This document shows positions 16,716-57,750 of a stretch of 64,000 nucleotides of DNA, piece after piece. Location of the stretch: assembly GCA_903813345.2 (NCBI GenBank), contig CAIIXF020000012.1, forward strand, positions 33,308,572 through 33,372,571. Reading direction: 5' to 3'. Numbering within the stretch: position 1 is the first letter of the stretch; each line of letters starts with the position of its first letter. The stretch is from Owenia fusiformis. Its lineage: Eukaryota > Annelida > Polychaeta > Sabellida > Oweniidae. Made by a program: the position numbers and the translations under genes. The notes beneath the pieces were generated by a model that saw nothing but the letters and a program-made list of their open reading frames with translations, did no database searches and was not told the origin of the DNA.

Positions 16716-16750
16716 TTCAGTATTTTCATATTTGTGTTTTTATGTTGTAG

Positions 16751-18182: not shown

Positions 18183-18285
18183 CGTCACAACCAATTTGAA
18201 TATTGCTTATTAAGCAGCTATAACGATCCTTAGAGTGAATTAATTTTCACCCTACTGATGAGAAAACATGTCCAGATACATTTAT

Positions 18286-19645
18286 TATGTCACCACCAAA
18301 AGTGGTGACATATTGTTATGGTCTCCGTTTTTTTGCGACGGCGTCCGGCGGTTGGTGGTTGGCGTCCGGCGGTTGGTGTCCGGCGGTTGGCGTCCGGCGT
18401 CTGTAACAATTTCTTACAACTTCCTATAACTTAACAAATACTGTTTAGACTGACTTCAATTTTTTTCTAAATCATCTACATGTTGTCAGAAGTTCAAATC
18501 TGACTTTAGATTTGACATTTGACCTTCAATGACCTTCTCAAGGTCAAAAAGGTCTTTTTTCAACTTGCTTCACATTGACTAAATTTTTTTTCAAAATCAT
18601 CTACATGTTCTCAGAAATTCAAATCTGACTTTAGATTTGACATTTGACCTTCAAATCTGACTTCAGATTTGACATTTGACCTTCAATGACCTTCTCAAGG
18701 TCAAAAAAGGTCAAAAAGGTCTGTTTTCAACTTGCTTCACATTGACTAAATTTTTTTTCAAAATCATCTACATGTTCTCAGAAATTCAAATCTGACTTTA
18801 GATTTGACATTTGACCTTCAAATCTGACTTCAGATTTGACATTTGACCTTCAATGACCTTCTCAAGGTCAAAAAAGGTCAAAAAGGTCTGTTTTCAACTT
18901 GCTTCACATTGACTAAATTTTTTTTCAAAATCATCTACATGTTCTCAGAAATTCAAATCTGACTTTACATTTTACATTTGACCTTCAAATCTGACTTCAG
19001 ATTTGACATTTGACCTTCAATGACCTTCTCAAGGTCAAAAAAGGTCAAAAAGGTCTGTTTTCAACTTGCTTCACATTGACTAAATTTTTTTTCAAAATCA
19101 TCTACATGTTCTCAGAAATTCAAATCTGACTTTAGATTTGACATTTGACCTTCAAATCTGACTTCAGATTTGACATTTGACCTTCAATGACCTTCTCAAG
19201 GTCAAAAAAGGTCAAAAAGGTCTGTTTTCAACTTGCTTCAAATTGACTAAATTTTTTTTTCAAAATCATCTACGTGTTCTCAGAAATTCAAATCTGACTT
19301 TAGATTTGACATTTGACCTTCAATGACCTTCTCAAGGTCAAAAAAGGTCAAAAAGGTCTTTTTTCAACTTGCTTCAAATTGACTAATTTTTTTTTTCAAA
19401 ATCATCTACATGTTCTCAGAAATTCAAATCTGACTTTAGATTTGACATTTGACCTTTAATGACCTTCTTAAGGTCAAAAAAGGTCAAAAAGGTCTGTTTT
19501 CAACTTGCTTCAAATTGACCAATTTTTTTTTTCAAAATCATCTACATCTTTTCAGAAGTTCAAATTTGACTTTACAAGTTCTCAGAAATTCAAATCTGAC
19601 TTAAGTTTGAACTCATAATATTGTGAGCAACTAGGTGGTGACATT
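18286..19645 (-). mobile_element. Satellite-bearing MITE, copy 2 (inverted)
   Basis: It starts ATGTCACCACCAAAAGTGG and ends AGGTGGTGACAT. The GTCCGGCGGTTGG block is at 18330-18400. The satellite body is in reverse orientation to the 1.2-kb copy, with about eight units; several are organised as ~166-bp higher-order units in which a CAAATCTGACTT segment is doubled. Confidence 0.85.
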
Positions 19646-19986
19646 TTGTCATGTTAATGCCTTGTCAAAAAATTATATTGATTCCTTTAGGCTAAAAATA
19701 CCATTTCATATCTGCTTTAATGTATAATGAACCTCTATACCTTAAAACCTCCTGAGTAGAACACTTTTTAGAAAAACCAAAGGTGTTCCAATTAGACAGG
19801 TTGTACTGTACTACAAAGGGTAGAACTAATCTTCAGAGGACGATGATTCTACACATTTACATAATACATGTAGCTGAATCTACATAAATTGTCTCTCGTC
19901 AATGTAAATAATTTTGGAATTCTTACTTTCTTGATAAAGTAACATCTGATTATGATTTAAGGAATCTGTATTAATTTTGTACTTAC

Positions 19987-20071
19987 GATATTCACTTGCA
20001 ACCATAAGGATCACACAAAAGATCACCAAGATCAAGAACCGCAACATTTTCACCGTGTTAAACAGCTTCAA
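19987..20071 (-). pseudogene. Orphan phase-1 signal-peptide exon, possible relic of a fifth paralog
   Basis: From ATG at 20071, 28 codons encode a hydrophobic leader (KMLRFLILVIFCVILMVAS) ending at TATC|GTAAGT, an ideal donor in phase 1. The length is 85 nt, the same as exon 1 of gene D. The KR(I/L)xEP activation site is not reached. The region 0.7 kb upstream (20745-20830) resembles 51828-51910 upstream of gene C, which supports a paralog relationship. No matching exon 2 or later exon is seen between 19986 and 16870, where repeats dominate. It may be a dead remnant or the first exon of an unrelated small secreted protein. Confidence 0.4.
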
Positions 20072-21290: not shown

Positions 21291-21889
21291 CTAAATAGGA
21301 ATAACATCATCTTCATATGTTAACATCCTTGTCACAAGTTCCTCTGTAACAGTCTCTTGGTTTTGTTCACTTAGATAATCTCCACTGCTTGGGAACACAT
21401 CATTAACTGTAGGATCTGAACTGGCAATTCTTTTCAGGTCCTGTTCGCCATTTTTTTCCTTTTTGTTCTTCAATCTTACTGCAAGTATATCTGTGCAGTG
21501 TTTCAGTTCAAGATTTCTTGCCTTTGAGAAAGTCTTGCCTCTCCATGATCCAAAATAAGTGATTCCATCATGAAACAAAACCAAGAAATTCGCTGAATCA
21601 TTTCTGTTGCCATCTTGGAGTATATTTCCTCGGACTTCATCAAAAATTTTAAATGTAGCTGTTATTCCTTTCACCTCAGTTGATAGGTCAGCGTTGTTCA
21701 GTTCAGCAATGTTATTGGTCAGATCAATTTCGGTTCTTGCACCCTGGTCGAACATGACAGCAGCAACTAGAATATCACATCCTTTCTCTTGTAACATCTT
21801 TGCTGTTTTAATGGCCACAGTACGGCTGGATTCTTTAGATTCTTTACTAATGCTGCCTGATACATCAAATGCAAATATGACATCTATTT
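21291..21889 (-). CDS. Gene A terminal exon: complete vWA domain
   Basis: A single exon encodes the entire vWA fold and the stop codon. It starts at acceptor CATCTTTCAG|AAATAG. The first strand and MIDAS loop read IDVIFAFDVSGSIS, giving the DxSxS triad (Asp302, Ser304, Ser306 of gene A). A second strand reads ILVAAVMFD, and a later strand LVLFHDG is in the position of the usual TDG loop, with His in place of Thr. About 190 residues is normal for a vWA domain. The C terminus is acidic (YEDDVIPI). Because the exon is single and phase 1, it could have been shuffled in or out as a unit. Confidence 0.88.
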
Positions 21890-24800
21890 CTGAAAGATGA
21901 ATATATAGTCATGAGTTCAATTTTTTCATCATGGGCTGAAGTTTCTGAGAGATGAATGTATTAAATTACTAGTAATAATAAGATCAGTTTTCGAATCATT
22001 GAACTCATGCAATTTCCTGATAAGCAGAAGTCAAATGCAAATATGAAATCTATTTGTGAAAGAAAAATGTATTACTTAACTAGTAATGGTAAGTTCTGTA
22101 GGGGTGTCTCAATTGGTTCTCAATTGACCAACCCTTTAGAAAAATATCACCAGCTAAACTTCGTCAATATCTCTGAATATGTTATTTTTCTGTCATCAAT
22201 AAAGTTAAGACAACAACTATTCCTTTAACTTACTTCCAAGAGGGCAGGATGACTCTTCATATCCTTTAGGTTCTTCTGTGGTAGATTCTTCATCTTTGCT
22301 TCCTTCAGGTTTTACTGGCTCACATGTCTTCACCTTTGTAGCTTTACAGGGACAAGGGCAAGCTGAATTAAATATTAAATAAACATTTCATATGTGGTAT
22401 GTCATTTCATATCATATGTGGAACCAATTAAAACAAGATTAATATGTTCTGTTTTATTTTCTTATTACTTTTCTGTGTAAACATTTATGACCTCTGCAAC
22501 AATCTTTCAAATAGATCATTAATTTTGAATCCAACTGATCTATTGCAAAGGTAGTATACAAAAGATAAATTTATTGATATTTTTTTTATTTTCATAAGTG
22601 GTAAAAGAAGAAATCTTTTTGACTAGAGCTATCCACACAATATACACTGCGTTTCCAAATCTCTTTGGTTTGGCTTCCCATCTCTCAAAGTTTTCTAAAT
22701 TTTTTGTTGCTTAATTCCTTTGTGTTGACCTGTGTATTCATAAATTGTGTATTTTGTCATCATACATCATCTTACCCTTTATTTGATCTTGTATCCACTT
22801 AACATATAGAGCTATATTCATCATTCTGCTGTTAATGCCTGGTTTTCCTGATTCATGGACTCCAACCTGACATGGCTCGTCCTTACCTATACAAAGTAAA
22901 AAATTAGCCTTCTCATTCATGCTAGTGTATATTAAAACTCCATGGTTTCTACAACGATAAGGGCACTGGCAGTTTTTTCACTTTGGATTTTATTGGTTTC
23001 TAAGTGAATATCTTCTTTTATTATATACCCAATATGTAACACTAATCCTGATTGGTCAATACCTAGTCACGTGTTCCGAAATAGATTTACTATTTCCCTC
23101 GGAAAGTTATATTCCCTCAAATGTGACGTCAGCGGGAATATACATTTGAACTATTGCCCGCTGACGTCACAATTGCAAGTTCTATTACCCTTGGAAACGT
23201 CTGCGCATCATCACTGTGCAGACGAAAAACAGAAAAATGGAGGATGAGCACAAACACAAATCAACTTCGTTCACCATGACAGACGTGCGTGAACGATACA
23301 ATATAAGCAACGTGTATAAAGTTCCCTAAGCTCAATACGTCTGTGTAATTTCAAGTGTTATGATAATCTATTCCGCGTGTTAAACGCGATTGAATTTGTC
23401 AAGTGAGAGTCTCAGAGGCAAAAATTTCTGTTGAGCATCTGATGACGTCACAGCTTATAATGCTAACAATGGACCCGGGAGGGGGCTTTCTAAGCCGTTT
23501 TGGCCTTCGCAGAGGAAACGGGACAAGAGTCAGTATAGGGTATATAATAAAACAAATAGTGACTGCCTAATTTCGAGCAATAGTGTAAATGATTTCCCCT
23601 TGGGAATATCCTCTACAATGTACTATTCCCTCAGCCTGCGGCTTCGGGAATAGTACATTGAAGAGGATATTCCCTCGGGGAAATAATTTACACTATTGCC
23701 CTCAATGGCAGTCACTATTTGTATAATGTTTCCCTTATTAGTGTCACTATTCGTAACTTTAAAAAAAAATTTGCTTCAGAAATCCTACCATTTTTCTTTG
23801 AACTTGCTATCCATGGTCCACCTGAGTCGCCACCTCCTGTAATATGAGGTTCAACCACAGAACATATTCCCTTCATGGCTTTACAATCTTCAATTGTATC
23901 TGATCTCTTTTTTAAAGTCTCCTGATATTTTCCCTTTTTACCAGGTAGGTGTTTTCCCCAACCATAAGCTGTAACATTGCATCCGTTTGCTGGGACTTTG
24001 GTCGACAAACTTATTGGGCCAATCTTGCCTGGGACATATTTCACACAGCGGGAAAGTTTCACCAGTGCGATATCAGGCATCCAGTTATTTGTCGCTTTTG
24101 CATCTTTATGTATTTTATATGTGAATGTATCTTTTTGTCCTGTTTTGAAAACTACAACTCCTTTCTTGTCAGTTGTATTGTGAACACCAAGTGAGACTTT
24201 ATTTATTTCCTTTCTGTAATAGAAAAGTACTGGAAATGAGATGAATTAGAGCATTTTAATATTCATCATAACAATTTCAAATGCTGGGTCAAATGATCTT
24301 GAAACTTAAAAAAAACATTGCTAAATTATGTAAATGGATAAATGCAAGGGGCTCAAGCATTTCAAACTCTAGACCTCATGGTTACAGAGCAAGAGCCTAG
24401 GTCAGGGTGATCAGTGCTCTCTACTGCTCCACAACCCCAAAAAAAGGTTGCTTGCATCAGCAAATTTGAAAAGACTTGAACAGGGGTTTATGCTCAAATA
24501 CACTAGAGGTACATGTAACATTCATACACACATTCACACACACAATTAGCTAAGAACGTCCTCAATGCATTTGTGTGTAGCATGAAGAGAATCTGTCTTG
24601 CATGCAGATAACATACCCAATTTGGAAGCAGTGAATGGCATGAAGAAAAGGTGTCTCACACTAGTGTAAATAACATACCCAATTTTGAAGCACACACACT
24701 TAGCTAAGACCGTCCTCAATGCATTTGTGTGAAGAGAATGTGTCTCACACTAGTGTAAATAACATACCCAATTTTAAAACAGTGAATGGCAGCAAGAATA

Positions 24801-25353
24801 TAACAATTATTGATGAGTGTTCCTCCGCATATTTCACCATTTGGGTCAACAAGATGTACCATCCATGGATGCTCAAGATCTCCAGCATTTTCATCTGTTA
24901 AAGTATGATATACATATAATGTGTGTGATGAGGAACATAATATTATACTCACAATTTTATTAGCAGTTGTTCTTCTTTTTGCATATAGTTTTGTAACTAT
25001 AATCTTTTTTCCCTTTGACACTAAGTTTTAATTTCCTGACATATTTGTATGAGACATTATGCACATTGTACATTTTCATTGTAGCTTTTCATATTTCATG
25101 ATATCAGTAATATACTTTCCTTTCTTTTATCCTTTCTACAGAAATTTGCTTCAATCTGTACAGAAAACGGTATTTTATTATTTTTGATAGCAGAGTAGAG
25201 AATTATAGTGTTGGCCTCTGATGGTGCCAATCAATTAATTGCAACTTAACATTAATAATTCTTACTTGGTTCAAGTATTCTCTTGTTCCGTGCTCCAAAT
25301 GTCATTGACATCAGCATGCACAATGATATTGCCAAAATCATCCTGAGCTGCAT
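21291..25353 (-). CDS. Gene A: secreted trypsin-like protease with C-terminal vWA domain
   Basis: There are six exons on the minus strand: 25353-25266, 24894-24768, 24213-23789, 22886-22776, 22362-22234 and 21889-21291. All junctions are GT..AG and the frame closes at 492 aa. Residues 1-20 are a signal peptide (a second in-frame Met at residue 5 could also start). NKR|ILEP at 24-29 is a dibasic activation site. The trypsin domain spans about 26-248, with His67 (AAIHC), Asp119 (PDIALVKL) and Ser202 (GGGDSGGPW). An acidic linker follows (251-293, opening CPCPC), then a vWA domain (295-485) with the MIDAS motif DVSGS at 302-306. The enzyme is probably an extracellular protease, with the vWA domain binding a divalent cation and a partner; that is inference from domains. 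The order trypsin-vWA is the reverse of complement factor B/C2. AATAAA lies downstream at 21074-21079. The last trypsin part is on a separate exon here, unlike the other three paralogs. Substrate is unknown. Confidence 0.85.
23016..23552. mobile_element. MITE with perfect 15-bp TIR in gene A intron 3
   Basis: TTTTATTATATACCC at the left and GGGTATATAATAAAA at the right are exact reverse complements. Inside, GTGACGTCAGCGGG (23123-23136) and CCCGCTGACGTCAC (23157-23170) form a perfect 14-bp stem, each arm with a TGACGTCA (CRE-type) site. Confidence 0.75.
23552..23724. mobile_element. Long palindrome / foldback MITE
   Basis: ACAAATAGTGACTGCC...GGCAGTCACTATTTGTA arms meet at CCTGCGGCTTCGG, with GGATATTCCC and GGGAATAGTACATTG stems. 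The two arms are nearly complementary along about 170 bp. It abuts the preceding element and lies 65 bp from the donor of gene A exon 3. Confidence 0.8.
24360..24440 (-). mobile_element. Possible tRNA-like SINE remnant
   Basis: On the minus strand TGGAGCAGTAGAGAGCAC and GGTCTAGAGTTTGAAATGC are spaced like weak A and B boxes. It is decayed; the call is tentative. Confidence 0.3.
24608..24790 (-). repeat. Partial tandem duplication of gene A exon 2 end
   Basis: The exon 2 terminus with its donor (…CATTCACTG…ATTGG|GTATG) is present at 24768 onward. It recurs at 24610-24640, encoding AIHCFQIG followed by the same donor, and in part at 24672-24690. GTGTCTCACACTAGTGTAAATAA links the copies. Confidence 0.7.
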
Positions 25354-26165: not shown

Positions 26166-26395
26166 TCAACCATCCACTTGAAATTCGGTCCGATACATTC
26201 TGCAATCTGGGGGAACTATATCTGGCTTCCATTTTCCGCGTGATGTACATAAGAATTGCATAATTCCTGTTGGATTTGTTGGAATATATTGAAATTTGCA
26301 TTTTACAATGACGACATCACCAGCTCTGTTATTGGTGAGAGAGCCACTGGTAAGAACCATGTCATCTTTGAGTGTGAAGTCCGTGCATCTTTCTC
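26166..26395 (-). CDS. CCP/sushi exon (last exon of gene B)
   Basis: The acceptor is ttgttttag. The exon opens with the first CCP cysteine (ERCTDF), has the second at VIVKC, the third at QFLC and the fourth at PPDC, with the conserved Trp in GKWKP. That is the canonical four-cysteine complement control protein fold, although only this one module is present. It is 60-70% alike by eye to the CCP exon at 52619-52866 (shared MVL.SGSL and NRAGD/SRAGD blocks). A short tail after the module ends in a stop at 26166. It could instead belong to a lost gene between A and B, since it sits only 0.8 kb upstream of gene A's start. Confidence 0.8.
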
Positions 26396-41300: not shown

Positions 41301-44300
41301 GTTTACACCAGGCATTAATGTTTTTATCCATCCTTGTATAGATATGCTTTCGTTGTTAATATTGATTCACTATTTTATAAATGCCTCGCATCTTATGAAC
41401 TGTAGCTAGTTTTGAATAGATAAACCCTGGTAAGTTCTTAAAATGCTGCAATTTCAATTAGGGGCAATTCTTCATATATCTTTTGGACATAAGTTTCAGC
41501 CAGTCTAAGATTTCCCTTTTCAATAATATGTATTATAATAGCCCGCTTGGAATTTTAATCCTATTTCTGCAGCAACGCTAACTATACTTTATCTGTAAAA
41601 TGCCTGTATTTCATATTTATATGATTGTTCCATTGTTTCAGATGGAATTATGATAACAATTTCCATTTGCTTGAAAAAGATTTATTAAATAAGAAATATT
41701 GCAGACCAAAACATTTTGATACACATTTATATGATGAAAATGTTTAACAAACATAAATGGCCGTCAATAAACTAGAAAAATAAAATAAATGAATAATTTA
41801 AGTAGTCCTGAATGGCTTATCACCACTTTCAAGTTATTTATTCCGTGGCACTGGATTTGTTAATTATACTACGGATCGTAACTGATTATTTCGGTCATAT
41901 CATGTCGAATGTCTTTAACTGGTAAATAGGGATATTACGACCTGCCCAGTTCATGTACAACTAACTTACCGCAAGTTAGTCGACAAGTGAAATGGTTCCA
42001 ATAAGCGATGTTTCAAAAATATATGATTTTCTATCGTTTTACGTTTTGGCGAATATAAACTAAAGAGGTTACTTCGCTAGAGCTTTTGAATTCTTCTATT
42101 AATTGGTAAAATACTTGTTTTCTCTTCAAAGTACAGTCAATCGTATATTACATATGAATTATCAATATATACAATCAAAATCAAAACGTTAACGAACATG
42201 TATTCCAAGAACCCAATTTTCTTCAACTTATGATATTACAAGCAACACTATAATCTTACAATTGCCGAACAGCACCCATCTGGACATCCTTTTCTTCATT
42301 TGATACATATTTTATAATGTAATTTACATTTTGATTGTGAAAATTCTCCCGGCGCAACGTCTGCCGGTGATCGGTTGGCAGTTGAAAAATACCGTAATCG
42401 GTAGGCACCCATAAGGTGAATCTGAACTTATGTGAGCAAAGCATAAACGATAAATCATGATCATAAATCATGATACGCAGGTAAACCGAGAATGCGAGAT
42501 AAAGGTACGTTTTAATAAATCCGTAACCCATTATTTTGTAGCTCCCAGTGTGAATAACGTAATGCGTTAATTTCAGTCAAAATCAAATAATTCGATGGAA
42601 CAGCATTTCCCTCTATAAACTTATCATCGGTTCAAAACCATAACATAATGGGTCAAACCTCAGGAATTCCCGGGGATCTCAGCCCCCCTATACTTTAACA
42701 TGGAAAAATTGATGAATGGGGAAAAAAAATATTTCTGATCAGTTAAACAAATATGTGTTCACATTATGTAAGACTTTAGATAATTAAAGACCTAGAAACA
42801 AAATATTTTGTTTCTATAATTATATAAAGGGCATTATATTTAACCACAAAGAAAGGGTTAAACCTGAAAAACGAGTTCATCGATTCGCCAAAAAGGTTGT
42901 AGAAAAATCCATTTTGATGATTCAGAAATAATATTTTAGAATATGAAAATTCACCTCATCTCCTAAATTGTGTTACAATTTTATATTGATCATCGAAATA
43001 ATAAAAAACTTATACCCGTCTAAAAAGCTCTCTCTATCGAGCCTCTTCCTTTGAAGAATAATAAATTTTCTTACTCAGTTTTTCATTAGGTTTGCAGATA
43101 TCAAGAGTGTATATACCATTACATTCATCTTCCTGTTTCTTATCCATTTCTGAAAAAATATATAGATGTTAGACATTGATCTCTCAAACATTAAAGCAAG
43201 TGGGCCCAGCACCCTCTGGGATTTTAAAACAGGCACCTGAGATTTCATTTGTACCCACTTGAAGATGAGAAAAAAAACATGTAAAATTGGCAAATTTTGA
43301 CCAATTTTGGCCTTAATTGTGAAAATGAGAATTTTGCACCTACTTGAGAAAAAATCCTGTGGAGAATACTGTTTAGAGAATATAAGTCAATATTTTATTG
43401 TTTCTAAAAGTAATGGAAGTAAATAAATGAGAATAAGAAAATTGATTTGAACTTTTCATTTGTTTTATAGATCAATTCATAAGCTTTTCACCTTTTACTT
43501 CCTTTTTAACTATAAACTATCTATTTATTCCTATGTGTTATTCCTATAAATGTGTTCCTCTTGTTTTTGTTTCATGTACAGGTTGAGCCAATAAAAATTG
43601 AATAAATGGAAAAATGTTCCAATTTTTATTGGCCCACCCTGTACATCAATATTATCTTACTCTTCATAGTGTTCTTAATCCAGCCATTGTTTACAAACTC
43701 AGCAATACTTGTAAACCTATCCACTCCACTCCTAGGGGAACTTTCCGTCAGCCCTATTAAACATGCTTTCTCAGTTCCATTCATATCCTTTCCTGGTATA
43801 ATCCAAGGCCCTCCTGAATCTCCTTTACCTGTTATCTCTGGACGGATAATACAATCGATATCGGAACATCTTTGAATTTGATCTGCTCGCTTTTTGAGAG
43901 TGCTCTGCTTTTTCCCTTTCTTTGAAAGTAAATTGTGTCCCCATCCGTAAGTCGTGATGTCCCATCCTTTCATTGGCGGTTCATCTGATAGGCATATCGG
44001 CTGAATTTTGCTGCTGTAGCTCAATGGGGTTGAGAGTCGTATTAAGGCTATATCTGGTATCCAGTCAGTTTTATATGCAGCATCTTTGTGAATATTATAG
44101 GTGAAAGCATTCTTTTTTCTTCCACTTCTGTAAATCGTGCCATGGTTAGAGAAATAGCTGTAATGAATCCCAAGGAAGATCTTGTTGATTGGTGCCCTGA
44201 AAATATTTAAATTATATGCAGAGTTCATTGCAGGCACAAATGTGGATTGGAAGTTCCCATTTCTTTACAATTTTGCAAAAAATATGCCAGTTTTTGATTT

Positions 44301-45415
44301 TTTCATTTAAGTTGGTGCAAACAGTTTTTTAGGTGTTCAAGTAGGTGTAAAGATGATAGCCCGAGAAAATTGAAGGATATCGTATTTATCCTATGGGTGC
44401 TGTTCTTGTATTGAATTAAAATAATTTGATCTAAAGATTGAAATATCTGCTCCAAGTCCTATAACATTTGATTCTCAGTGAGCCAGAGCTTGTACTCACT
44501 GCCATCTTTTTAAGAAGGTTTTGTGAACAAATCTTGCAAATAATCTTGCCAAATGTCTATCATGTTCATCCTTATTTCAAAATGTCAAATATTCTTCAAG
44601 AAATTGTCAAACCGTTTTCGGCAATATAATTCAAAACTAGAAAAAAATAGTATCCATCAGATACGATTGAATATCATGTATTGTGTTTAAAGTGTGTAAT
44701 AACAGATGAGAGATAATTGATAAAATGCCAGAAATAACTATTTCTAGAACATATTAATTATTTCAATAAAGAATTGAATCTCTCTATATATATGTCTATC
44801 ACTTCCGAACGCTGGATAATGCATAGCTATATCTGTTATTATTTCTGGAAGAAATTTACAAGTTTATTAATCTCAAATATGATGATCGGAACATTCCACA
44901 AAACATGGCAAACATTTATAATAAAGAGATTAACAGAAGCATTTTTGAAGAATTGAGATATTGGGTCGTATTCCTATGCCAAGATGCAATAATATTTACC
45001 CTAATGTAAAACAGTGCGCTGCTGTAATAATATTACAATTGTTTATGATGACCCCGCCACAAAAGCCACCTTTGGGATCAGTCAACAAAGCCATCCATGG
45101 GTGCTCATCCACCTCAGTATTCTCATCTGAAGAAGGTGATATATTCAAAATTGATTATATGTATATTTCATTTTCAAATACTCATAAAGTCAGGTGCCAT
45201 AGATTTACAGTTCTATTGTTCAATTTACAGTTCTATTTTTCGAAATGTATATATTGAGTGAGAAATGTTAACGAGGGTGCAAATCAACAACACAATTAAT
45301 ATATAATTATTATTAAGTATATCTTACTTGGTTCAATAATTCGTTTTTGTTTTGTCCTTCCGTGCGTCCCCTCTACCAGCATCAAAATTAATATATAATG
45401 CAAACTAGAAAACAT
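26166..45415 (-). CDS. Gene B: secreted trypsin-like protease with C-terminal CCP/sushi domain
   Basis: There are five exons: 45415-45328, 45126-45000, 44196-43661, 43149-43075 and 26395-26166. The phases are 1-2-1-1 and the frame closes at 351 aa. Residues 1-19 are a signal peptide, followed by KQKR|IIEP. The trypsin domain has His67 (TAAHC), Asp120 (PDIALIRL) and Ser199 (GKGDSGGPW). A short stalk exon (MDKKQEDEC...DICKPNE) follows, then one CCP module (about 279-340) with four cysteines and the W before the fourth (GKWKP...PPDC). The CCP exon is 16.7 kb from the stalk exon; I join them because phase 1 matches and gene D has the same stalk-CCP order only 382 bp apart. The protease exons are nearly certain. 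Inclusion of the distant CCP is likely but needs transcript support. It is probably an extracellular protease. Confidence 0.8.
26780..26990 (+). repeat. Inverted repeat, left arm (pairs with 42862-43055)
   Basis: GAAGAGGCTCGATAGAGAGAGCTTTTTAGA, ATTCTAAAATATTATT, TTTTTTGGCGAA(G)CGATGAA and CGTTTTTCAG occur in the same order here and on the opposite strand at 43055-42862, at roughly 75% identity by eye. The longest exact block exceeds 25 bp. Confidence 0.85.
26991..29199. other. Gene B last intron, nothing firm
   Basis: A 68-codon minus frame at 27289-27495 looks slightly protein-like (VRSGPWNYL) but has no recognised family and no clean splice sites. Two ATGTGGCTCTGCGGCTG repeats lie at 28130 and 28214. 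Otherwise AT-rich. Confidence 0.4.
29200..29315. mobile_element. Foldback MITE with ATTGAGT-ACTCAATCGGCC stem
   Basis: CCGATTGAGTGTTTTGTTCAAA pairs with TTTGAAACAAAATACTCAATCGG around a short loop. The body matches the element at 41021-41142. Confidence 0.7.
29316..31112. other. Gene B last intron, nothing recognised
   Basis: AT-rich DNA with a C-run at 30891-30905. No exon, array or RNA gene seen. Confidence 0.5.
31113..31516. mobile_element. Foldback element with ~115-bp arms
   Basis: AAGGTACAGCTGGAAAGTAA...TTTTCTGGTACAAAAT and CCTTGCTTTTTT on the left are matched in reverse by AAAAAAGCAAGG...TACCAGAAAATAACATGTGC...TTCCAGCTGTACCTT on the right, with about 165 bp of loop. Confidence 0.85.
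31517..31855. other. Gene B last intron, nothing recognised
   Basis: Short AT-rich stretch between foldback elements. Confidence 0.5.
31856..32590. mobile_element. TATTACCACC-type MITE with nested insertions
   Basis: A palindrome (31856-31950, AACGTCATTTCGAAGGGCAATAT and its mirror) abuts an element from TATTACCACC (31959) to GGTGGTAATA (32578-32587). Nested within is a second element, 32056-32320, with 25-bp ends TTATCCTATACCAAGTAGAG. It carries three tandem TCTTCCCGCTTCCGGTGCAT units. A third inverted repeat lies at 32340-32440. The outer family recurs at 56712-56931, and a fragment at 32766-32825. Confidence 0.75.
32591..33265. other. Gene B last intron
   Basis: It contains a fragment of the preceding MITE family (AAATGCCTTCTAAACTAGCA, 32766 onward). 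No coding signal seen. Confidence 0.5.
33266..35383. mobile_element. Tc1/mariner-like relic, 2.1 kb, TA target site
   Basis: CAGGGCGTTCAATAAATACT (left) and its reverse complement at the right end (AGTACTTATTGAACGCCCTG) form TIRs of about 33 bp with two or three mismatches, flanked by TA on both sides. The length would fit an autonomous mariner-class element, but I see no transposase frame. A 144-bp internal segment (TGCACTCTAACAGGAAGG...) is duplicated at 33371 and 33515. Confidence 0.75.
35384..36309. other. Gene B last intron, nothing recognised
   Basis: A GATGACGACG-type low-complexity stretch lies at 35715-35775. The 88-codon minus frame over it is not protein-like. Confidence 0.5.
36310..37745. 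repeat. Satellite array, ~82-bp unit with higher-order repeat
   Basis: About 17 units of TTTGGCATGACAATTGAGTG...GATTGACAACTTGTAGATAA. Type variants (GGAATTAGCTTGTGAAACA, GGAGCTAGCTTGTAAAA, GTATCTTAAAACGAAATAAA) recur in a fixed order. A block near 37015-37300 is repeated near 37305-37590, indicating a ~290-bp higher-order unit. All minus-strand frames here are repeat translations. Confidence 0.9.
37746..38181. other. Gene B last intron, nothing recognised
   Basis: AT-rich DNA ahead of the unassigned open stretch at 38182. Confidence 0.5.
38182..38576 (+). other. Unassigned exon-like open stretch
   Basis: After a good acceptor (tatatttcag) a 34-codon frame (opening IGSGRDTAYKK) stops at 38282. 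An overlapping +1 frame starting at 38253 runs 107 codons to 38576 and looks protein-like (GEGETQQLIPFNIPLTG). I recognise no family. It could be a decayed or frameshifted exon, or chance; it lies inside the gene B intron on the opposite strand. Confidence 0.25.
38577..39178. other. Gene B last intron, nothing recognised
   Basis: AT-rich; the 97-codon minus frame here is low complexity. Confidence 0.5.
39179..39430. mobile_element. MITE with perfect 24-bp TIR
   Basis: TTATAACATACCTATGATGA at the left is exactly mirrored by TCATCATAGGTATGTTATAA at the right (24 bp including TGTA/TACA). Total length is 252 bp. A GCTGACGTCATAACC block is inside. Confidence 0.9.
39436..39548. mobile_element. Short foldback MITE
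   Basis: TTATGTCACCATCGTGGCAC and GCCACGATAGTGACATAA arms lie around a 55-bp middle, 5 bp after the preceding element. Confidence 0.85.
39793..40319. mobile_element. Large foldback element (~527 bp, nearly complete palindrome)
   Basis: The left arm starts ATCACTGGTGATCC and passes GATTACGCTGGTTACCAAAA and TCGAAGGTACGATTTT. The right arm mirrors every block and ends GGATCACCAGTGATCATT. Each arm is about 255 bp with little unpaired centre (near 40055-40075). Frames on both strands are mirror translations. Confidence 0.92.
40320..41020. other. Gene B last intron with small inverted repeat
   Basis: CGTGTGGGCTCACCGTTCG (40681) and CGAACGGTGAGCCCACGTGG (40786) bound a ~150-bp foldback. The rest shows nothing. 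Confidence 0.6.
41021..41142. mobile_element. MITE with CACATTTGCTC ends
   Basis: CACATTTGCTCCGATT at the left and AATCTGAGCAAATGTG at the right are inverted. CTCAATCGGCCG inside matches the 29.2-kb element. Confidence 0.75.
41143..42861. other. Gene B last intron, nothing recognised
   Basis: 41845-41950 resembles 20575-20690 (GGCACTGGATTTGTT block). No exon seen; the 91-codon minus frame at 42256-42531 has no family and no splice context. Confidence 0.45.
42862..43055 (-). repeat. Inverted repeat, right arm (pairs with 26780-26990)
   Basis: Reverse complement of the left arm. It begins 20 bp inside the intron after gene B exon 4, so the pair bounds almost exactly the extra 16 kb of gene B's last intron. 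Confidence 0.85.
43075..45415 (-). CDS. Gene B protease core exons 1-4
   Basis: This entry marks the compact part of gene B, which is secure without the distant CCP exon. Exon 1 encodes the signal peptide and KQKR. Exon 2 encodes HPWMALL, FCGG and the His loop TAAHC. The 536-nt exon 3 encodes everything from LGIHY to NTMKK, including Asp and Ser of the triad. Exon 4 encodes a 25-residue stalk with two cysteines (DEC, DIC). Exon 4 ends CTGA|GTAAGA, a strong donor, so the transcript is expected to continue. If that donor is ignored, the frame runs only about 14 more codons to a stop at the edge of the inverted repeat. Confidence 0.88.
43579..43640. mobile_element. 62-bp mini-MITE next to gene B exon 3 donor
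   Basis: CAGGTTGAGCCAATAAAAAT and ATTTTTATTGGCCCACCCTG are inverted, flanked by TA on both sides. It sits 15-20 bp inside the intron beyond the donor at 43661. Confidence 0.75.
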
Positions 45416-47066: not shown

Positions 47067-50000
47067 TTATGTGCAGAATGTTTGATAAAACAGCCTAAAT
47101 CGAGGTAGATTAAGTCCAAGAGATGGAAATAAAATTAAATGTGTACAAGTCTTACTTGTAGGCCTACTTGTAGTCCCACTCGTTGTCCCGCTCGTAGTCT
47201 TACTTGTTTCCAATGAATCTGGTTTGCAGATGTCAAAATTTAATATGTTCTTACATGAGTCTTTGGATTTTGCATCCATTTCTAAAATTAGAATACCATC
47301 AGTACAATTATGTTTGGATATAACTGAACATATAGATTTTTATTTGTCATAGAATTTTGCATCTTTTAATTCAGTTAATTCACTAATACATGACCCTTAA
47401 GAAAAAAGCCATGGTAACCATGGTATTCCATGGTGCGTCCATGGTAATCCATGGTTTTTCATGGTATTTTCCATGGAAATTCATGGATACCCATGGTAAT
47501 CTTCCATGGATATTTACCATGATTTTCCGTGGTAATTGGTGGTTTGGTAATTGTTTTTTCATGAACATGCCATGTTTTTACCATGACACTTGAGTTGTAA
47601 AATCAACAATTTTGGCAGGTTTTGTTTTTACCAAAATCTTCAAAATTGAATCAATATTTTAATGAATGAATCCAAGCTGGATTGAGAATTAGTCTCATTA
47701 ATCATAGATAAAAGAATATGACACCCCCCCCCCCACCCCAAAATCTTTGAGAAAGTCAACCTTCTTGACAAAAGCTGGTTTCAGGCCTGAAATACAACCA
47801 TGTTTTTACAATCTGAATATATGTTTAGTACATTCTGTACATAGTGTCATATGACAAAGAACTGTTTACTTAATTTTTTTTTAATTGATGATAATTTGAT
47901 AATTTGTTTGCTGGGATTTGCTATCATTTAACTTTGGCACTTATGTAAAAAAGACAAAATAAGTGATAAAATCAGCTCACTGGATTCCCTTATTGCAGAC
48001 TGAATAAACATTTTTACTTGAGAGTAAATCTTATTTGGTTTTATTTGATCAACAATGAGTTTTTGACTTGCACTGTCTACACTCACAGACAATAATAATT
48101 ACTGAAGAGGGAGCATTAGAAAGAGTAAGATTATCATATATAATAACAATTAAGATCAGAATATTTAAGAATTATGCAAATTAACTCTTATAATCTGTTG
48201 TAAAGAGATTAATCTTTTGACATTAATTTGAGAGTTAAGACACCTAATTAACATAGAATAATGGCAACCAAATATTTAAAAATTATGCAAATGATTATTT
48301 ATTCCTATTCAAAGACAAATCAATTTTAATTACTTATACTATGTTTCATGTTTTAAGCCAAATGGTGTTGTTAACCCCCTCCCCTTCCTTCGTGCAACTT
48401 CTTTTTAAATATAATATTCTTACATAGACAAATTGAATTTTTATCACTTAGGTATAACATTTCAGTTTGCAGCCATAGGCTTGTGTTTAATCCCCCATCT
48501 CAATTTCAAGTCTTAATTTGGAGAAGTTCATTTAGAAACATAATGTATTATTCATTTTTCTGCTTCCAAAAGACCAAACAAATAGCCCATGGAAAACCAT
48601 GGACTTTCAAAAGATCAAAAGAATAATCATGGAAAACCATGGCTTTTGATTGCACTTTCCAAAACATCAAAGAAATAACCATGGAAAAGCATGGCTTTCG
48701 ATTGCAATCAACCGTCTTCCATGGCTTTTGATTGCAGTTTTCTCAACTTCAAAGAAAGAAACCATGGTTTTTGATTGTATTCTCAAATGTACGAAATGTA
48801 ATTTAAGAAAATGAGTTATTTATTTCTTAAATTACTTCATATTGATTTTTAAAACTGAAAATTAAAGAAAGTATTAAAATAAAACAGAGCTTGGGCTAGA
48901 TTGACTTAATCTTTTTCAAAGGAAAGAAGTGTTTGGCCTAGAAAATAAGCAATCTCTATCTAGTCTTGATCTACACAAAAGACCTTTGCACAATTGTTTT
49001 TGAAATCTTGTGGCCTACTCTCTGCTCTGCTGTTTCACATATTTTCTCATTTGTAAGCTGAGTCTAACATTCGATGAATGTTCTTGCTATACCTTCAAAA
49101 TGAAATATCCACCCTTTTTTCTCAATGATAAGTCTCAGTCTAACTGTGATATATCATCAAAACATTCATTTCGGAGATTTTGGTAAATACAAATCCTACC
49201 AAAATTGTTGATTTTACATCTCCATGACACATCCATTAAAAACCAATTACCAAACCAACAATTACCACGGAAAATCATGGTAAATATCCATGGAAGATTA
49301 CCATGGGCGTCCATGAATTTCCATGGAAAATAACATGGAAAACCATGAATTTCCATGGAAAACCATGGATTACCATGGGCCATGGAATACCATGGTTACC
49401 ATGGCTTTTTTCTTAAGGGAATTACTGTACTTCTACTTAATTTGGTGGATCCGCCAAATTGGTAAAGTCCACCAATAAGAAGCTGCCAAATTCCCAGTAA
49501 TTTGAACCTTTGTAAATAAGTACCAATATTGCATTGTAATGTTGCAAGTCTGCCAAATTAAGTAACTGCCAAATGTTCAAAACAGCAAATCCACCAAAAT
49601 AAATAGCACCAAATTAAGAAGAAGTACAGTAAGAGGTGTTATATCATACTATTTATTTATTTATTATATTATCATACTCTCATCATATTCTTACTCTTCA
49701 TTGTGTTCCATATCCAACCATTGTTTACATATTCAGCAATATTTGTAAACCTATCAATTGTACTTCGAGGGGAACTTTCCGTCAGCCCTATTAAGCATGG
49801 TGTCCTTTTTCCATTCATATCCTCTCCTGATGTAATCCAAGGCCCTCCTGAATCTCCTTGACCTGTTATCTCAGGTATGACTGTACAGTCAATGTCGGAA
49901 CATTGTGTGATTGTCTCTTTTCGCTTTTTGAGAATATTCTGTGATTTCCCTTTCTTCAGTGAATGATGTCCCCATCCATAAGCGGTCAAATTTAATCCTT

Positions 50001-51280
50001 CTTCTGGGGTATTACTTGATAAGCATATTGACTGGATTTTGTTTTCGGCATATGTTAATGGGTTTGAGAGTCTGATCATGGCAATATCTGGTATCCATTG
50101 ATTATTTTTTGTTGCCTTTTCATGTATTTTGTACATAAAAGTATTCAAGCTTCTCCCTCTCGTGTAAATGGTACCGTGGTTCAGAAACTTCCGTTTATGT
50201 ATCCCTAGATTAACTTTGTTTATTGGCTTCCTAAGACATGTATATGGGTAATCAAAAAGTTCTCAGAATGTCTCTCTTGAGTGTTATTTCTTTTTTTCAA
50301 GATTATGAGAACTTTTTGATCACCCCTTGTAAGTCTGCAAACAAGGCCATAACAGTCAAATTAAAAGCAGCAGTCAGTGGATAAGATATATGAGAATACA
50401 ATATACTGTATACTCTATAATTGAAAAACATGAAAAAAGGATGGAACGGGTTGATTTTGAAGGTAAAAAGAAAAATTTTCCTCTCATAATGGCGATGTTT
50501 TGAGGTCATTTATATAACAGAAATATTTACCCTAATGTAAAGCAGTGTGCTACTGTGAGAATAAAACATCTGTTTATGATGACCCCGCCACAAAAGCCAC
50601 CTTTGGGATCAGTCAACAGAGCCATCCACGGGTGCTCATCTACCTCAGTATTCTCATCTTAAAATACAAGTAGAAGCTCAAGTGGGAAAAGGGAGAAGAT
50701 CAGAGAGCATTTTCAAACACATCAAGAAAAAGAAACATTTGAACATAACCAGTCAAATTATGGCAAAAGGGGAAAAATAAAGAGCATTAGAAGACACAGC
50801 AGGAAAAAGAAACATGAAAGAGTCCAACCAGTTGTTGCAAAGGAGAAAACCAAAGAATATTAGAAAACACAGGAAGAACAGGATATATTAAAAGAGCCAA
50901 ATCAGTTGTAATATTGGCAAAGGAGAAAGAGCATTATAAAGCGACGCAAGAAAAAGAAAGATTAAAAGAGCAAATCACTCATAATATAGCAAAAAAGAAA
51001 CAGCCAAAATGTATTGAAAACAAAACAAGAAATATAAACATTGAAGTACAATGTTATATGACAAGAGGGAAAACACAGCAAGTAAAAGGAAACATCAAAG
51101 GAAAAGGATTATTGAAGATATATCGAAAAAAGCAGTGCTATCATTAAAATAAGAATGCCTAAAAATCTTTAAAAATCAAAATGTCTTACGTGGTTGAATA
51201 ATCCTTTTTTGTTGTCCATGTATCCCTTCTAACATCATCAATATATATAATATATACTGTAATATAACTATAGAACACAT
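47067..51280 (-). CDS. Gene C: secreted trypsin-like protease with Thr/Ser-rich tail
   Basis: There are four exons: 51280-51190, 50657-50531, 50230-49695 and 47281-47067. Read through to the first stop, they give 322 aa. The signal peptide is residues 1-22, followed by QQKR|IIQP. The His loop reads ILTVAHC (Val instead of Ala before AHC; His68 retained), Asp is in PDIAMIRL and Ser in GQGDSGGPW. The stalk exon is MDAKSKDSC...DICKPD, followed by TTSGTTSGTTSRPTSK, a likely O-glycosylated mucin-like run. The usual phase-1 donor survives (ACAA|GTAAGA at 47204), but I find no CCP exon between it and gene B. Read-through with the AATAAA at 46958-46963 is therefore my preferred end. Exon lengths 127 and 536 equal those of gene B. 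Intron 3 carries a 2-kb TIR element. Confidence 0.83.
47394..49419. mobile_element. CCATGG-rich TIR element, copy 1 (gene C intron 3)
   Basis: The ends CCCTTAAGAAAAAAGCCATG and CATGGCTTTTTTCTTAAGGG begin TIRs of about 240 bp packed with CCATGG. The TIRs also include AACAATTTTGG(C/T)AGG. The interior is non-coding AT-rich DNA with TGGAAAACCATGGCTTTTGA repeats at 48580-48770. The element is 2026 bp. I see no transposase. Confidence 0.88.
50246..50325. mobile_element. 80-bp mini-MITE in gene C intron 2
   Basis: GGGTAATCAAAAAGTTCTCA pairs with TGAGAACTTTTTGATCACCC. It lies about 15 bp upstream (minus sense) of the exon 3 acceptor at 50230. Confidence 0.8.
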
Positions 51281-52618: not shown

Positions 52619-52866
52619 TTATTGAAAAAGTTTAGCTGGGTTTACATGTCTAGCAAAATACAGCCAATAATCTACAAAACTTATGCACTGAGGGAGCGAA
52701 TCTGGCTTCCAGTTTCCCCTTGAAGTACATGAGACCTGTTTACTTCCAACGGTCACATATAAAGGACTGCACCCAACCGTAACAGTGTCTCCAGCTCTGC
52801 TGTTGAAGAGGGATCCACTTATTAATACCATGTTCTTTTTCATTTTCAGGTCTCTGCATTTTTTCT
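52619..52866 (-). CDS. CCP/sushi exon of gene D
   Basis: The acceptor is tcatttcag. The module opens KKCRDLKM, has its second cysteine at VTVGC, third at QVSC and fourth at LPQC, with Trp in GNWKP. The exon also encodes a 20-residue extension rich in aromatic and hydrophobic residues before the stop. This is a single CCP; classic factor B has three at its N terminus. Confidence 0.85.
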
Positions 52867-55800
52867 CTGAAATGAAGGAGATAAGATCTACACTACAAAT
52901 TTTGAAACTTGATTTTGATTTTCTGTGTGTCATTTCTGACATATTGATAAAGTTTAGATTTTAGCTCTATAGACGCATTGAAAAATTTTCCATTAAAGAA
53001 ACATAGAAAGGAAATGGTAGAATGAGCTAAATGTTAATTTTCTATCTTCTATTTTAGATCTTGGCCAACATTTTAATACTCAAATTCATAAATTATATGT
53101 TGTAATGTAAGGGATGTCGGGTCTTTATAATCCATAAATTTTGTTATCTCGAATGACTGAATTGAAATGAATTGAAAAGTAACAAAACGTGCAGAAGTCT
53201 CAGCAGTGCTAACAAATATCAAAAACAGTAAAATATAATGTACATACTAAGTTCTGCAGTATCTGGTTTGCAGATGTCAAACTTTAATGTGTTATTGCAT
53301 TGGTCATGTTGATCTGCATCCATCGCTGAAATTGAACCCATTCTCTATTATATTTAAAATATAATATATATTGAATTTGATTATTTGTCATACAGCGTAG
53401 TGCTACAAAAACTCAAATTATAAATATACATTGATCAGGCTCATAATGACGATGAGAATAATTTACAAGTAACCAGTCTAAAGAATTTTATGATGTGCCT
53501 CAATAGAATTGGTGTAGTTCATGCTTAATCAGTTTTAGGTTTGAAATCTACCCTTAAGAAAAAAGCCATGGTAACCATGGTATTCCATGGTGCGTCCATG
53601 GTAATCCATGGTTTTCCATGGAAATTCATGGTTTTTCATGGTATTTTCCATGGAAATTCATGGATACCCATGGTAATCTTCCATGGATATTTACCATGAT
53701 TTTCCGTGGTAATTGGTGGTTTGGTAATTGTTTTTTCATGATCATGCCATGTTTTTACCATGACACTTGAGTTGTAAAATCAACAATTTTGGCAGGTTTT
53801 GTTTTTACCAAAATCTTCAAAATTGAATCAATATTTTAACAAATGAATCCAAGCTGGATTGAGAATTAGTCTCATTAATCATAGATAAAAGAATATGACA
53901 CCCCCCCCCCACCCCAAAATCTTTGAGAAAGTCAACCTTCTTGACAAAAGCTGGTTTCAGGCCTGAAATACAACCATGTTTTTACAATCTGAATATATGT
54001 TTAGTACATTCTGTACATAGTGTCATATGACAAAGAACTGTTTACTTAATATTTTTTTAATTGATGATTTGACCCCACAATTAAAAGTAATAATTTGTTT
54101 GCTGGGATTTGTTATCATTTAACTTTGGCACTTATGTAAAAAAAGACAAAATAAGTGATAAAATCAGCTCACTGGATTCCCTTATTGCAGACTGAATAAA
54201 CATTTTTACTTGGAGTAAATCCTATTTGGTTTTATTTGATCAACAATGAGTTTTTGGCTTGCACTGTCTACACTCACAGACAATAATAATTACTGAAGAG
54301 GGAGCATTAGAAAGAGTAAGATTATCATATATAATAACAATTAAGATCAGAATATTTAAGAATTATGCAAATGAACTCTTATAATCTGTTGTAAAGAGAT
54401 TAATCTTTTGACATTAATTTGAGAGTTAAGACACCTAATTAACATAGAATAATGGCAACCAAATATTTAAAAATTATGCAAATGATTATTTATTCCTATT
54501 CAAAGACAAATCAATTTTAATTACTTATACTATGTTTCATGTTTTAAGCCAAATGGTGTTGTTAACCCCCTCCCCTTCCTTCATGCAACTTCTTTTTAAA
54601 TATAGTATTCTTACATAGACAAATTGAATTTTTATCACTTAGGTATAACATTTCAGTTTGCAGCCATAGGCTTGTGTTTAATCCCCCATCTCAATTTCAA
54701 GTCGAAATTCTGTAAAAGTATATACTTTTCTGTGGATTTTTTCAGATAATATGCTTATAAAAGTTGAATGGGACTTAATTTGGAGAAGTTCATTTAGAAA
54801 CATAATGTATTATTCATTTTTCTGCTTCCAAAAGACCAAACAAATAGCCCATGGAAAACCATGGACTTTCAAAAGATCAAAAGAATAATCATGGAAAACC
54901 ATGGCTTTTGATTGCACTTTCCAAAACATCAAAGAAATAACCATGGAAAAGCATGGCTTTCGATTGCAATCAACCGTCTTCCATGGCTTTTGATTGCAGT
55001 TTTCTCAACTTCAAAGAAAGAAACAATGGTTTTTGATTGTATTCTCAAATGTACGAAATGTAATTTAAGAAAATGAGTTATTTATTTCTTAAATTACTTC
55101 ATATTGATTTTTAAAACTGAAAATTAAAGAAAGTATTGAAATAAAACAGAGCTTGGGCTAGTTTGACTTAATCTTTTTCAAAGGAAAGAAGTGTTTGGCC
55201 TAAAAAATAAGCAATCTCTATCTAGTCTTGATCTACACAAAAGACCTTTGCACAATTGTTTTTGAAATCTTGTGGCCTACTCTCTGCTCTGCTGTTTCAC
55301 ATATTTTCTCATTTGTAAGCTGAGTCTAACATTCGATGAATGTTCTTGCTATACCTTCAAAATGAAATGTCCACCCTTTTTTCTCAATGATATGTCTCAG
55401 TCTAACTGGGATATATCATCAAAACATTCATTTTGGAGATTTTGGTAAATACAAATCCTACCAAAATTGTTGATTTTACATCTCCATGACACATCCATTA
55501 AAAACCAATTACCAAACCAACAATTACCACGGAAAATCATGGTAAATATCCATGGAAGATTACCATGGGCGTCCATGAATTTCCATGGAAAATAACAAGG
55601 AAAACCATGAATTTCCATGGATTACCATGGGCGCACCATGGAATACCATGGTTACCATGGCTTTTTTCTTAAGGGTACATCTTGTTCAGAAATTCTATCA
55701 TTCGAGTATGAGTTATAGCAGTATTGGAGAGTCAGTTTGGATATCGGGTTTAGCCCTTTGGAAACATTAACATCAATAAATATATATCCATCAGGATGAA

Positions 55801-57750
55801 TTCTGTATTCTAAACCAACTGTAAATAACCCTTCTATATTTGTTTACAAGCTAGGATAGGTAAGAATTGAAAAAAATAATTAAGTAATATATTTTACTTT
55901 TCATTGTATTTTTTATCCAACCGTTGCTCACATATTCAGCTACATTCGTAAACCTATCAACTCCATTCCTAGGGGAACTTTCCGTCAGCCCTATTAAGCA
56001 TGTTGTCTTGTTTCCATTCACATCCTTTCCTGCTGTTATCCAAGGCCCTCCTGAATCTCCTTTACCTGTGATCTCAGGTTGGATGACGCAGGAAAGTTTA
56101 GAACATCGTCCAATTTTATCTTTTCGTTTTTTGAGAATATTTTGAATTTTCCCTTTCTTTGTTATTAGGTGGTTCCCCCATCCATATGCGGTTACATTCC
56201 ATCCTTTCACAGGTTGCTCATCTGATAGGCATATCGGTTCAATTCTGCCTTTGACGTATGTTAAGGGATTTGAGAGTCTAATTAAAACTATATCCGGTAT
56301 CCAATCATTTTTTTCCTTTGCACTTTCATGGATTTTGTATGTAAAGGAATTTCTTTCTCTTCCCCTTTGGTAGATGATCCCCCTGTTGAGGTATCGCAAA
56401 CTGCTCTTATGTGTCCCAAGAATCACCTTTTTAATCGGCTTCCTAGATGGCAAAATTAAGTAAGAATGATAAAAGAATGACTTCAAATAAATTGATGGAA
56501 AACACAAACAAAAAAGTAAGTTGTTCTTAAGAATCAGTCTGTTAGATTCTTTCACCTAGAGATTCCTTTGATTCCTTAACCTTGAGAGCTTTTGATTCAA
56601 ATGTTTTCATTTTACAGAATGTAATTATAACTTTATGAGATTAAGTTTGGTTCATACTTAGTGCTAAGTAACATATTGCTGTAATTTTAAATTCCTCATA
56701 GATATATGATATTATTACCACCTTGCCGGGCCAGTTCTAGGGGTTTTAGTGCTAGTTAAGGCATTCATTTTACCTCATCGACCTGAAAAATGTGTGACGT
56801 CATAGTGGTGGTCCATATGGACCGGTCTAGAATATATTCTGGACCGGCAATTTTCTCCGGGAAATTAGATATCGTTCAGTGCGTAAGATTTTCTTGCTAT
56901 TTCAGCCCTGGTCGTTAACGGTGGTAATAATATTTATAACGTCATTTCTACGAGCAATATAGTGTAGATATGTTCTAAAGGACTACCCTAATGTAAAGCA
57001 GTGTGCTGCTGCGAGAATATGGCATCTGTTTATGATGACACCTCCACAGAAACCACCTCTAGGGTCAGTTAGGGCAGCCATCCATGGATGTTCATCCTCT
57101 GTAGCATCTTCAGCTAAAATGAAATATTACAAAGGAGGTTTTTCGATATTAGGAATGAATTTAAAAAATCATGATTCACTGCAATATCGCTAAATAGTGT
57201 CATTATAAATAAAAAGAGGTGTTTCGATATTGGTAATGATCCCAAAACATGATTCACGACAATGTCACTAAATAGTGTCACTTATTATGTCAGTAAAATC
57301 AAAGCACGACACATACATTATTGAAGTGATTGTTGAAGTTCGCAATCTCTTTTTTACTTTTAACAATTTTGTCTGGACTTCAACGATACTCCAAATATAT
57401 TCAATCAACTTTCTTGGAATTGTTTATCAAGTCTGGCTTATGAAATTGAGAATAGTGCATAGATTTTTCAGCATGGCTACCTCTTTTCTTGTCAAAAACA
57501 ACAACTTTTGTCTCAAGATCTTAGTATCAATTGAATCCATTAAACTATTTGATCCATTAGTACCTTCAAAGTACTATTTACTTTCATTTTCTCAGCCATT
57601 TGTGATTTTTTTTCCAGAAGACTAAAAACCTAATACAACTTTCAAGATCAAAGTAAATTGCTTACATGGTTCAAGAATTCTCTTTTGTTTGCCTCCATAT
57701 ACCCCAGCTACCAGCAACAGTGTACGACATAAGTTTATTAAAAACAACAT
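52619..57750 (-). CDS. Gene D: secreted trypsin-like protease with C-terminal CCP/sushi domain
   Basis: There are five exons: 57750-57666, 57113-56987, 56442-55898, 53325-53248 and 52866-52619. The frame closes at 360 aa with phases 1-2-1-1. The signal peptide is about residues 1-19, then KQKR|ILEP. The trypsin domain has His66 (AAAHC), Asp in PDIVLIRL and Ser in GKGDSGGPW. The stalk exon (MDADQHDQC...DICKPDTAEL) is followed by one CCP with four cysteines and GNWKPDSLPQC, then a hydrophobic tail. The stalk-CCP intron is only 382 bp, which defines the ancestral arrangement for the cluster. AATAAA at 52597-52602 follows the stop directly. Intron 2 contains a TATTACCACC-type MITE and intron 3 the 2.1-kb CCATGG element. 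The intron-2 donor is the weaker TTAGG|GTAGTC. Substrate is unknown. Confidence 0.87.
53551..55675. mobile_element. CCATGG-rich TIR element, copy 2 (gene D intron 3)
   Basis: It has the same ends, orientation and interior as copy 1, nearly identical by eye. Differences include an extra ~75 bp near 54705-54775 (starting GAAATTCTGTAAAAGTATAT) and a GACCCCACAATTAAAAG insertion near 54070. TA flanks it on both sides here, unlike copy 1. Outer flanks of the two copies do not match. Confidence 0.88.
56712..56931. mobile_element. TATTACCACC-type MITE in gene D intron 2
   Basis: It runs from TATTACCACCTTGCCGGG to GTTAACGGTGGTAATA. The interior (TAGATATCGTTCAGTGCGTA) matches the 31.96-kb copy in opposite orientation. 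GTGACGTCATAG is inside. It ends 56 bp from the exon 2 donor. Confidence 0.8.

What the first reader, a model, noticed from the sequence alone, without database searches (positions are those of the whole stretch)
21291..25353. Trypsin-vWA protease: complement factor B domains in reverse order
Gene A reads as one 492-aa frame with a signal peptide, an intact His/Asp/Ser trypsin domain and a C-terminal vWA domain with a full DxSxS MIDAS motif. Complement C2 and factor B place CCPs and vWA before the protease. Here the protease leads. In factor B the vWA domain holds the partner and gates the protease; a C-terminal vWA would need a different arrangement. I do not know a named family with this order.
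Basis: partly seen in the sequence, partly recalled or inferred. Interest (0 to 1): 0.8.

Follow-up and report, generated by a model that had tools for sequence, protein, structure and literature searches.

The report
Secreted protease with C-terminal vWA domain
A secreted animal trypsin-family protease carries a metal-binding adhesion domain behind the enzyme instead of in front of it, and sits beside sister genes that carry a different complement-type domain in the same place, which suggests a small family of proteases with exchangeable docking arms.

Summary
On the minus strand six GT-AG exons (25353-21291) read as one 492-aa frame: signal peptide, complete trypsin domain (Pfam E=9.1e-21; H67/D119/S202), Cys/Thr/Glu-rich linker, and a vWA domain with all five MIDAS residues (Pfam E=4e-8 for the exon alone). 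No good start exon for a separate vWA gene lies in introns 3-5.

Upstream on the same strand lie three tandem paralogues, B, C and D, 46-50% identical to A over the protease. All end the protease with a phase-1 donor at the same place and run into a linker exon. D, and probably B, then enter a CCP/Sushi exon in the same phase. "Protease first" is therefore the family plan. A carries vWA where its sisters carry CCP. This looks like exon shuffling behind a free-standing protease, not a permuted factor B. The S1 pocket has Ile at 189 and lacks Cys191, so it is not trypsin-type.

Most likely: a secreted protease, activated at the conserved KR|I site and positioned by a metal-dependent C-terminal vWA. 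How widespread the architecture is stayed untested: no animal protein database was available.

The parts
25266..25353 (-). Gene A exon 1: signal peptide, short propeptide ending RNKR, start of protease (ILEP)
   Evidence: ATG frame, donor GTAAGA; K24 R25 I26 P29 invariant in 4 of 4 paralogues
24768..24894 (-). Gene A exon 2: catalytic His67
   Evidence: GT-AG; Pfam Trypsin; paralogous exon in B, C and D
23789..24213 (-). Gene A exon 3: catalytic Asp119 and Ser202; Ile196 at chymotrypsin position 189 (numbering by my count back from the Ser)
   Evidence: Pfam Trypsin; MPDIAL and GDSGGP motifs
22887..23788 (-). Intron 3, absent from B, C and D; holds a foldback repeat
   Evidence: 171-nt self-complementary stretch at 86%, 15-nt inverted repeats; exon uninterrupted in the three paralogues
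22776..22886 (-). Gene A exon 4: end of protease, phase-1 donor
   Evidence: same donor position as B, C and D
22234..22362 (-). Gene A exon 5: Cys/Thr/Glu-rich linker, phase 1-1
   Evidence: codon score above 4,000 of 4,000 placements, narrowly; C-x7-C-x-P resembles C-x8-C-x-P of the paralogues' linker exon
21291..21889 (-). Gene A exon 6: vWA domain, MIDAS D302 S304 S306 T370 D401, stop codon
   Evidence: Pfam VWA E=4e-8; MIDAS positions by alignment to integrin alpha-L
52619..57750 (-). Paralogue D: exons 57750-57666, 57113-56987, 56442-55898, 53325-53248, 52866-52619; signal-trypsin-linker-CCP, 360 aa
   Evidence: spliced frame open to a stop; Sushi 30.8 bits, cut-off 20.7
47204..51280 (-). 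Paralogue C: exons 51280-51190, 50657-50531, 50230-49695, 47281-47204; signal-trypsin-linker, 3' end unresolved
   Evidence: no CCP match between it and B
43075..45415 (-). Paralogue B, 5' part: exons 45415-45328, 45126-45000, 44196-43661, 43149-43075; signal-trypsin-linker
26166..26395 (-). CCP exon assigned to paralogue B across a 16.7-kb intron (tentative)
   Evidence: phase 1 entry and stop; 51% identical to the CCP of D over 61 columns; Sushi 16.9 bits, below cut-off 20.7

Best explanation
Gene A encodes a secreted, probably active S1A serine protease with a vWA docking module fused behind the enzyme by exon shuffling. Proposed working: signal peptide removed; the 5-residue propeptide cut at RNKR|ILEP by a proprotein convertase or trypsin-like enzyme; the new N-terminal Ile pairs with Asp201 and makes the protease active; the flexible, acidic, Cys-containing linker carries the vWA, which binds a partner through a metal ion and so places the protease on its substrate or surface. 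Sister genes put the same kind of enzyme on a CCP module. Shown: gene structure, intact triad and MIDAS, conserved activation site, shared phase-1 junction, different modules in different paralogues. Inferred: secretion, activation, activity, metal binding and docking role.
For: One open 492-aa spliced frame with consistent phases; Pfam Trypsin and VWA above cut-off; HDS triad and KR-I-x-x-P site in 4 of 4 paralogues; phase-1 donor after the protease in 4 of 4 and phase 1-1 linker exon in 4 of 4; CCP terminal exon in D and probably B; purifying selection among B-D proteases, dN/dS 0.20-0.35 by NG86; vWA exon scores as coding; weak scan for a separate vWA start.
Against: No transcript. The likeness of A's linker exon to that of the paralogues is weak: 7.4% of shuffles of its letters give the motif. 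The vWA has no paralogue in the window and no relative was found, so selection on it could not be measured; dS between A and the others is saturated. The vWA model was poor. One hydrophobic frame in intron 3 could in principle start a shorter transcript, with a poor donor. Activation, specificity and partner are untested.
Confidence: 0.6

Rival explanations
1. It is a complement convertase subunit like factor B or C2 with its domains in another order: the vWA binds a C3-like thioester protein and delivers the protease to it.
For: Same two domain types, intact MIDAS, CCP modules in sister genes. The best, non-significant Foldseek match of the poor vWA model was C2 in C4b2, E=0.25.
Against: Factor B/C2 keep CCP-vWA-protease across the animal phyla tabulated in PMC11312191 (passages). 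Factor B/C2 absent from the 60 best PDB matches shown (13 matches in all). Here the protease has its own short propeptide and activation site, so the vWA cannot hold the zymogen as in factor B. No C3 gene was searched for.
Confidence: 0.12
2. Two neighbouring genes, or alternative ends: the protease stops or splices elsewhere and the vWA exon belongs to a separate or rare transcript.
For: No transcript data; intron 3 of A is absent from the paralogues and carries a repeat; relic copies of exon edges in introns 2 and 5 show local rearrangement.
Against: Neither exon 5 nor exon 6 has its own start; 4 possible phase-1 start exons in introns 3-5, none with a consensus-like donor. The donor after the protease is shared by 4 of 4 paralogues, which all have further exons.
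Confidence: 0.12
3. A structural matrix or shell-type vWA protein in which the protease is incidental or processed away.
For: vWA is a frequent module of mollusc shell proteins (PMC11291548, abstract in search listing); a CBM14 gene lies downstream.
Against: Intact triad and activation site in 4 of 4 paralogues and purifying selection among B-D. The organism is not identified.
Confidence: 0.12

Closest known systems
Complement factor B / C2
   Same: Secreted trypsin-fold protease plus vWA with MIDAS; CCP modules occur in sister genes here.
   Different: Factor B/C2 order is CCP-vWA-protease (PMC11312191, passages; PMC4840205, passages). Here protease-linker-vWA, no CCP in gene A, own short propeptide, Ile at 189, no Cys191.
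Chymotrypsin-family (S1A) digestive, clotting and venom proteases
   Same: Fold, triad, activation by a new N-terminal Ile; nearest PDB sequence matches are of this type.
   Different: C-terminal vWA or CCP extension; clotting and complement proteases usually carry modules in front of the enzyme (established knowledge).
MASP / C1r / C1s
   Same: CCP next to an S1A protease.
   Different: There CCPs precede the protease (PMC11312191, passages); in D and probably B here the CCP follows it.
'complement C2' entry in Dreissena polymorpha plasma proteome
   Same: Listed domains trypsin-like serine protease and vWA (PMC7148315, passages).
   Different: Order, length and sequence not given in what I saw; it may or may not be the same architecture.

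Membership tests
S1A (trypsin) protease | Pfam Trypsin match with His/Asp/Ser triad | tested here: met
   E=9.1e-21; H67, D119, S202
S1A (trypsin) protease | R/K|I activation site ahead of the domain | tested here: met
   KRI invariant in 4 of 4 paralogues; cleavage itself not tested
Trypsin proper | Asp189 and Cys191-Cys220 in the S1 pocket | tested here: not met
   HITGGGDSGG: Ile at 189, Gly at 191, counted back from Ser202; pocket labels recalled
vWA with MIDAS | Pfam VWA match and DxSxS...T...D | tested here: met
   34.1 bits, cut-off 23.8; D302 S304 S306 T370 D401, T and D by alignment to integrin alpha-L
vWA with MIDAS | Metal-dependent ligand binding | not testable with these tools
   needs protein
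Complement factor B / C2 | Order CCPs-vWA-protease | tested here: not met
   trypsin 34-244, vWA 296-453, no CCP in gene A
Complement factor B / C2 | Closest sequence similarity to factor B/C2 | tested here: not met
   not among the 60 best PDB matches shown; animal proteomes not searchable
Complement factor B / C2 | Binds C3b/C4b and cleaves C3/C5 | not testable with these tools
   needs protein
Local tandem protease family (A-D) | Phase-1 donor after the protease and a phase 1-1 linker exon | tested here: met
   4 of 4 genes
Local tandem protease family (A-D) | Linker motif C-x8-C-x-P | tested here: inconclusive
   3 of 3 in B-D; A has C-x7-C-x-P, reached by 7.4% of shuffles

The most novel reading that the evidence does not exclude
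A tandem family of proteases in which one catalytic head is shared and the targeting module behind it is exchanged between complement-type domains (CCP, vWA). The vWA member would be an independently evolved surface-docked protease, working like a convertase with the docking arm on the other side of the enzyme.
Probability: 0.2. Interest if true: 0.75.

Novelty: new variant of a known kind. Interest (0 to 1): 0.5.

Why it matters
Complement proteases are taught as enzymes gated by modules placed in front of them. A family that keeps the enzyme first and exchanges CCP for vWA behind it, with the same exon phase, would be a natural experiment on whether a vWA can target a protease without also gating it. 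It also shows module exchange between neighbouring genes.

Tried and rejected
Own-genome search: no genome is held. Relatives: viral contigs gave 0 of 74 pattern matches confirmed; genome contigs 1 of 79, a Hahella ganghwensis trypsin-like frame, 31% identical, of the ordinary DSCQGDSGG type (its neighbour frame was not scanned for domains). Structure: AlphaFold of the vWA exon alone, pLDDT 39.9; Foldseek 372 matches at E<=10, none at E<=0.001, so I give it no weight, although vWA-containing chains are among its top rows. Papers: 9 answered searches; passages of 9 papers were seen, none read whole. Considered and rejected: chance frame; vWA as a separate gene; the CCP exon at 26.4 kb as part of gene A (it ends in a stop before A's own start). 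My notebook entry calls the foldback in intron 3 'arms 171 nt'; the right reading is one self-complementary stretch of 171 nt.

Full report
WHAT IS THERE. The window is intron-containing animal-type DNA, 33% G+C; its species was not identified and no genome is held for it. On the minus strand gene A has six exons: 25353-25266, 24894-24768, 24213-23789, 22886-22776, 22362-22234 and 21889-21291. All introns are GT-AG, phases agree, and the frame is 492 aa.

DOMAINS. Pfam gives Trypsin at 34-244 (E=9.1e-21) and VWA at 296-453 (E=6e-7); the vWA exon alone gives E=4e-8. The triad is H67, D119, S202; the MIDAS is D302, S304, S306, T370, D401. Counting back from Ser202, position 189 is Ile and 191 is Gly, so the pocket is not that of trypsin; those labels are recalled. 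The first 30 residues read as a signal peptide and a 5-residue basic propeptide (RNKR) ahead of ILEP (by inspection; no signal predictor was run).

IS IT MORE THAN CHANCE. Only 4 of 1,484 frames of 25 aa or more reach 195 aa: the vWA frame and three protease exons. Codon scores of exons 5 and 6 exceed 4,000 of 4,000 random placements, exon 5 by a hair (0.371 against 0.369). A separate vWA gene would need its own start: of 29 ATGs in introns 3-5, 4 phase-1 GT ends are possible and none has a consensus-like donor; one, at 23277 in the foldback of intron 3, is hydrophobic with donor GTTTCC and remains a weak loophole.

THE FAMILY AROUND IT. tblastn with gene A and a frame-against-frame comparison found three more genes on the same strand, modelled: D (57750-52619, 360 aa), C (51280-47204, 3' end open) and B (45415-43075 plus, tentatively, 26395-26166, 351 aa). 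Over the protease, A is 47, 46 and 50% identical to B, C and D; B-D are 65-67% identical to each other with dN/dS 0.20-0.35 (NG86); dS to A is saturated or undefined. KRI and the triad motifs are kept in 4 of 4.

THE SHARED JUNCTION. In 4 of 4 genes the protease ends at a phase-1 donor at the same place (GTAAG in A, B and C, GTAAA in D), followed by a phase-1 linker exon. The linker exons of B, C and D are plainly related (C to D E=5e-8, B to D E=2e-5). A's linker shares K, C, C and P columns with them, but 7.4% of shuffles give the motif, so that homology is only suggestive. After the linker, D enters a CCP exon (Sushi 30.8 bits, above the cut-off of 20.7). A related CCP exon at 26.4 kb (16.9 bits, below the cut-off; 51% identical to D's) fits B in phase but lies 16.7 kb away. 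No CCP was found for C. The vWA occurs only in A.

WHAT IT MEANS. Putting the protease first is the plan of the whole cluster. The terminal module is what differs, in exons of one phase class, the usual sign of exon shuffling (established knowledge). A was therefore probably not made by reversing a factor B gene. Factor B and C2 were not among the 60 best PDB matches shown (of 310; of 498), and no vWA match was significant.

HOW IT LIKELY WORKS. In factor B the vWA sits before the protease and helps hold it in check. Here the enzyme has its own short propeptide and a free N-terminus after cleavage, so the vWA cannot act as that cover. I infer that it is a docking arm: secreted enzyme, cleavage at RNKR|I, Ile26-Asp201 pair, then metal-dependent binding by the vWA through a flexible linker. 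Activity, metal binding and partner are all untested.

KNOWN OR NEW. Nine answered full-text searches showed no paper that I could recognise as describing signal-trypsin-vWA; the direct phrase search returned one paper, on sea anemone factor B with vWA and trypsin at the C-terminal end (PMC4840205, passages). PMC11312191 (passages) reports CCP-vWA-protease order for C2 and factor B across the phyla it screened. PMC7148315 (passages) lists a mussel plasma 'complement C2' with trypsin and vWA domains, order not given. PMC9334734 (passages) shows that the name factor B is used loosely in molluscs. The library holds only open-licence papers and no protein database of animals was at hand, so unpublished or merely annotated examples may well exist.

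SCORE. A sound prediction of an unusual architecture with an informative family context, but without transcript, taxonomic range or function: 0.5.

Noticed in passing
47393-49419 and 53550-55676: The first intron after the protease in C and D holds the same element of about 2.0-2.1 kb, 95-97% identical, with inverted ends of about 280-300 nt, while neighbouring exons are only 74-82% identical. Recent insertion in both, or gene conversion.
   Followed up: partly
22887-23788: Intron 3 of A is missing in B-D and holds a 171-nt self-complementary stretch and 15-nt inverted repeats: possible intron gain through a foldback element, or loss in the others.
   Followed up: partly
22030-22070 and 24616-24645: Relic copies of the start of the vWA exon and of the end of exon 2 lie inside introns 5 and 2.
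   Followed up: no
17363-20047: A separate two-exon gene on the minus strand, signal peptide (20047-19987) and one CBM14 chitin-binding domain (17538-17363), both phase 1; domain E=2.5e-11, boundaries by eye.
   Followed up: partly
44991-45131 and 50522-50662: Exon 2 of B and C is 91% identical in DNA although exon 3 is only 74%, as gene conversion would give.
   Followed up: no
18540-19574 and 1249-2976: Large inverted pairs of tandem repeats with 135-167 nt units flank the left part of the window.
   Followed up: no
16666-16923 and 58298-58585: Plus-strand frames that look like coiled-coil exons; Pfam gives nothing above cut-off. The protease cluster may lie between or within another gene.
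   Followed up: no
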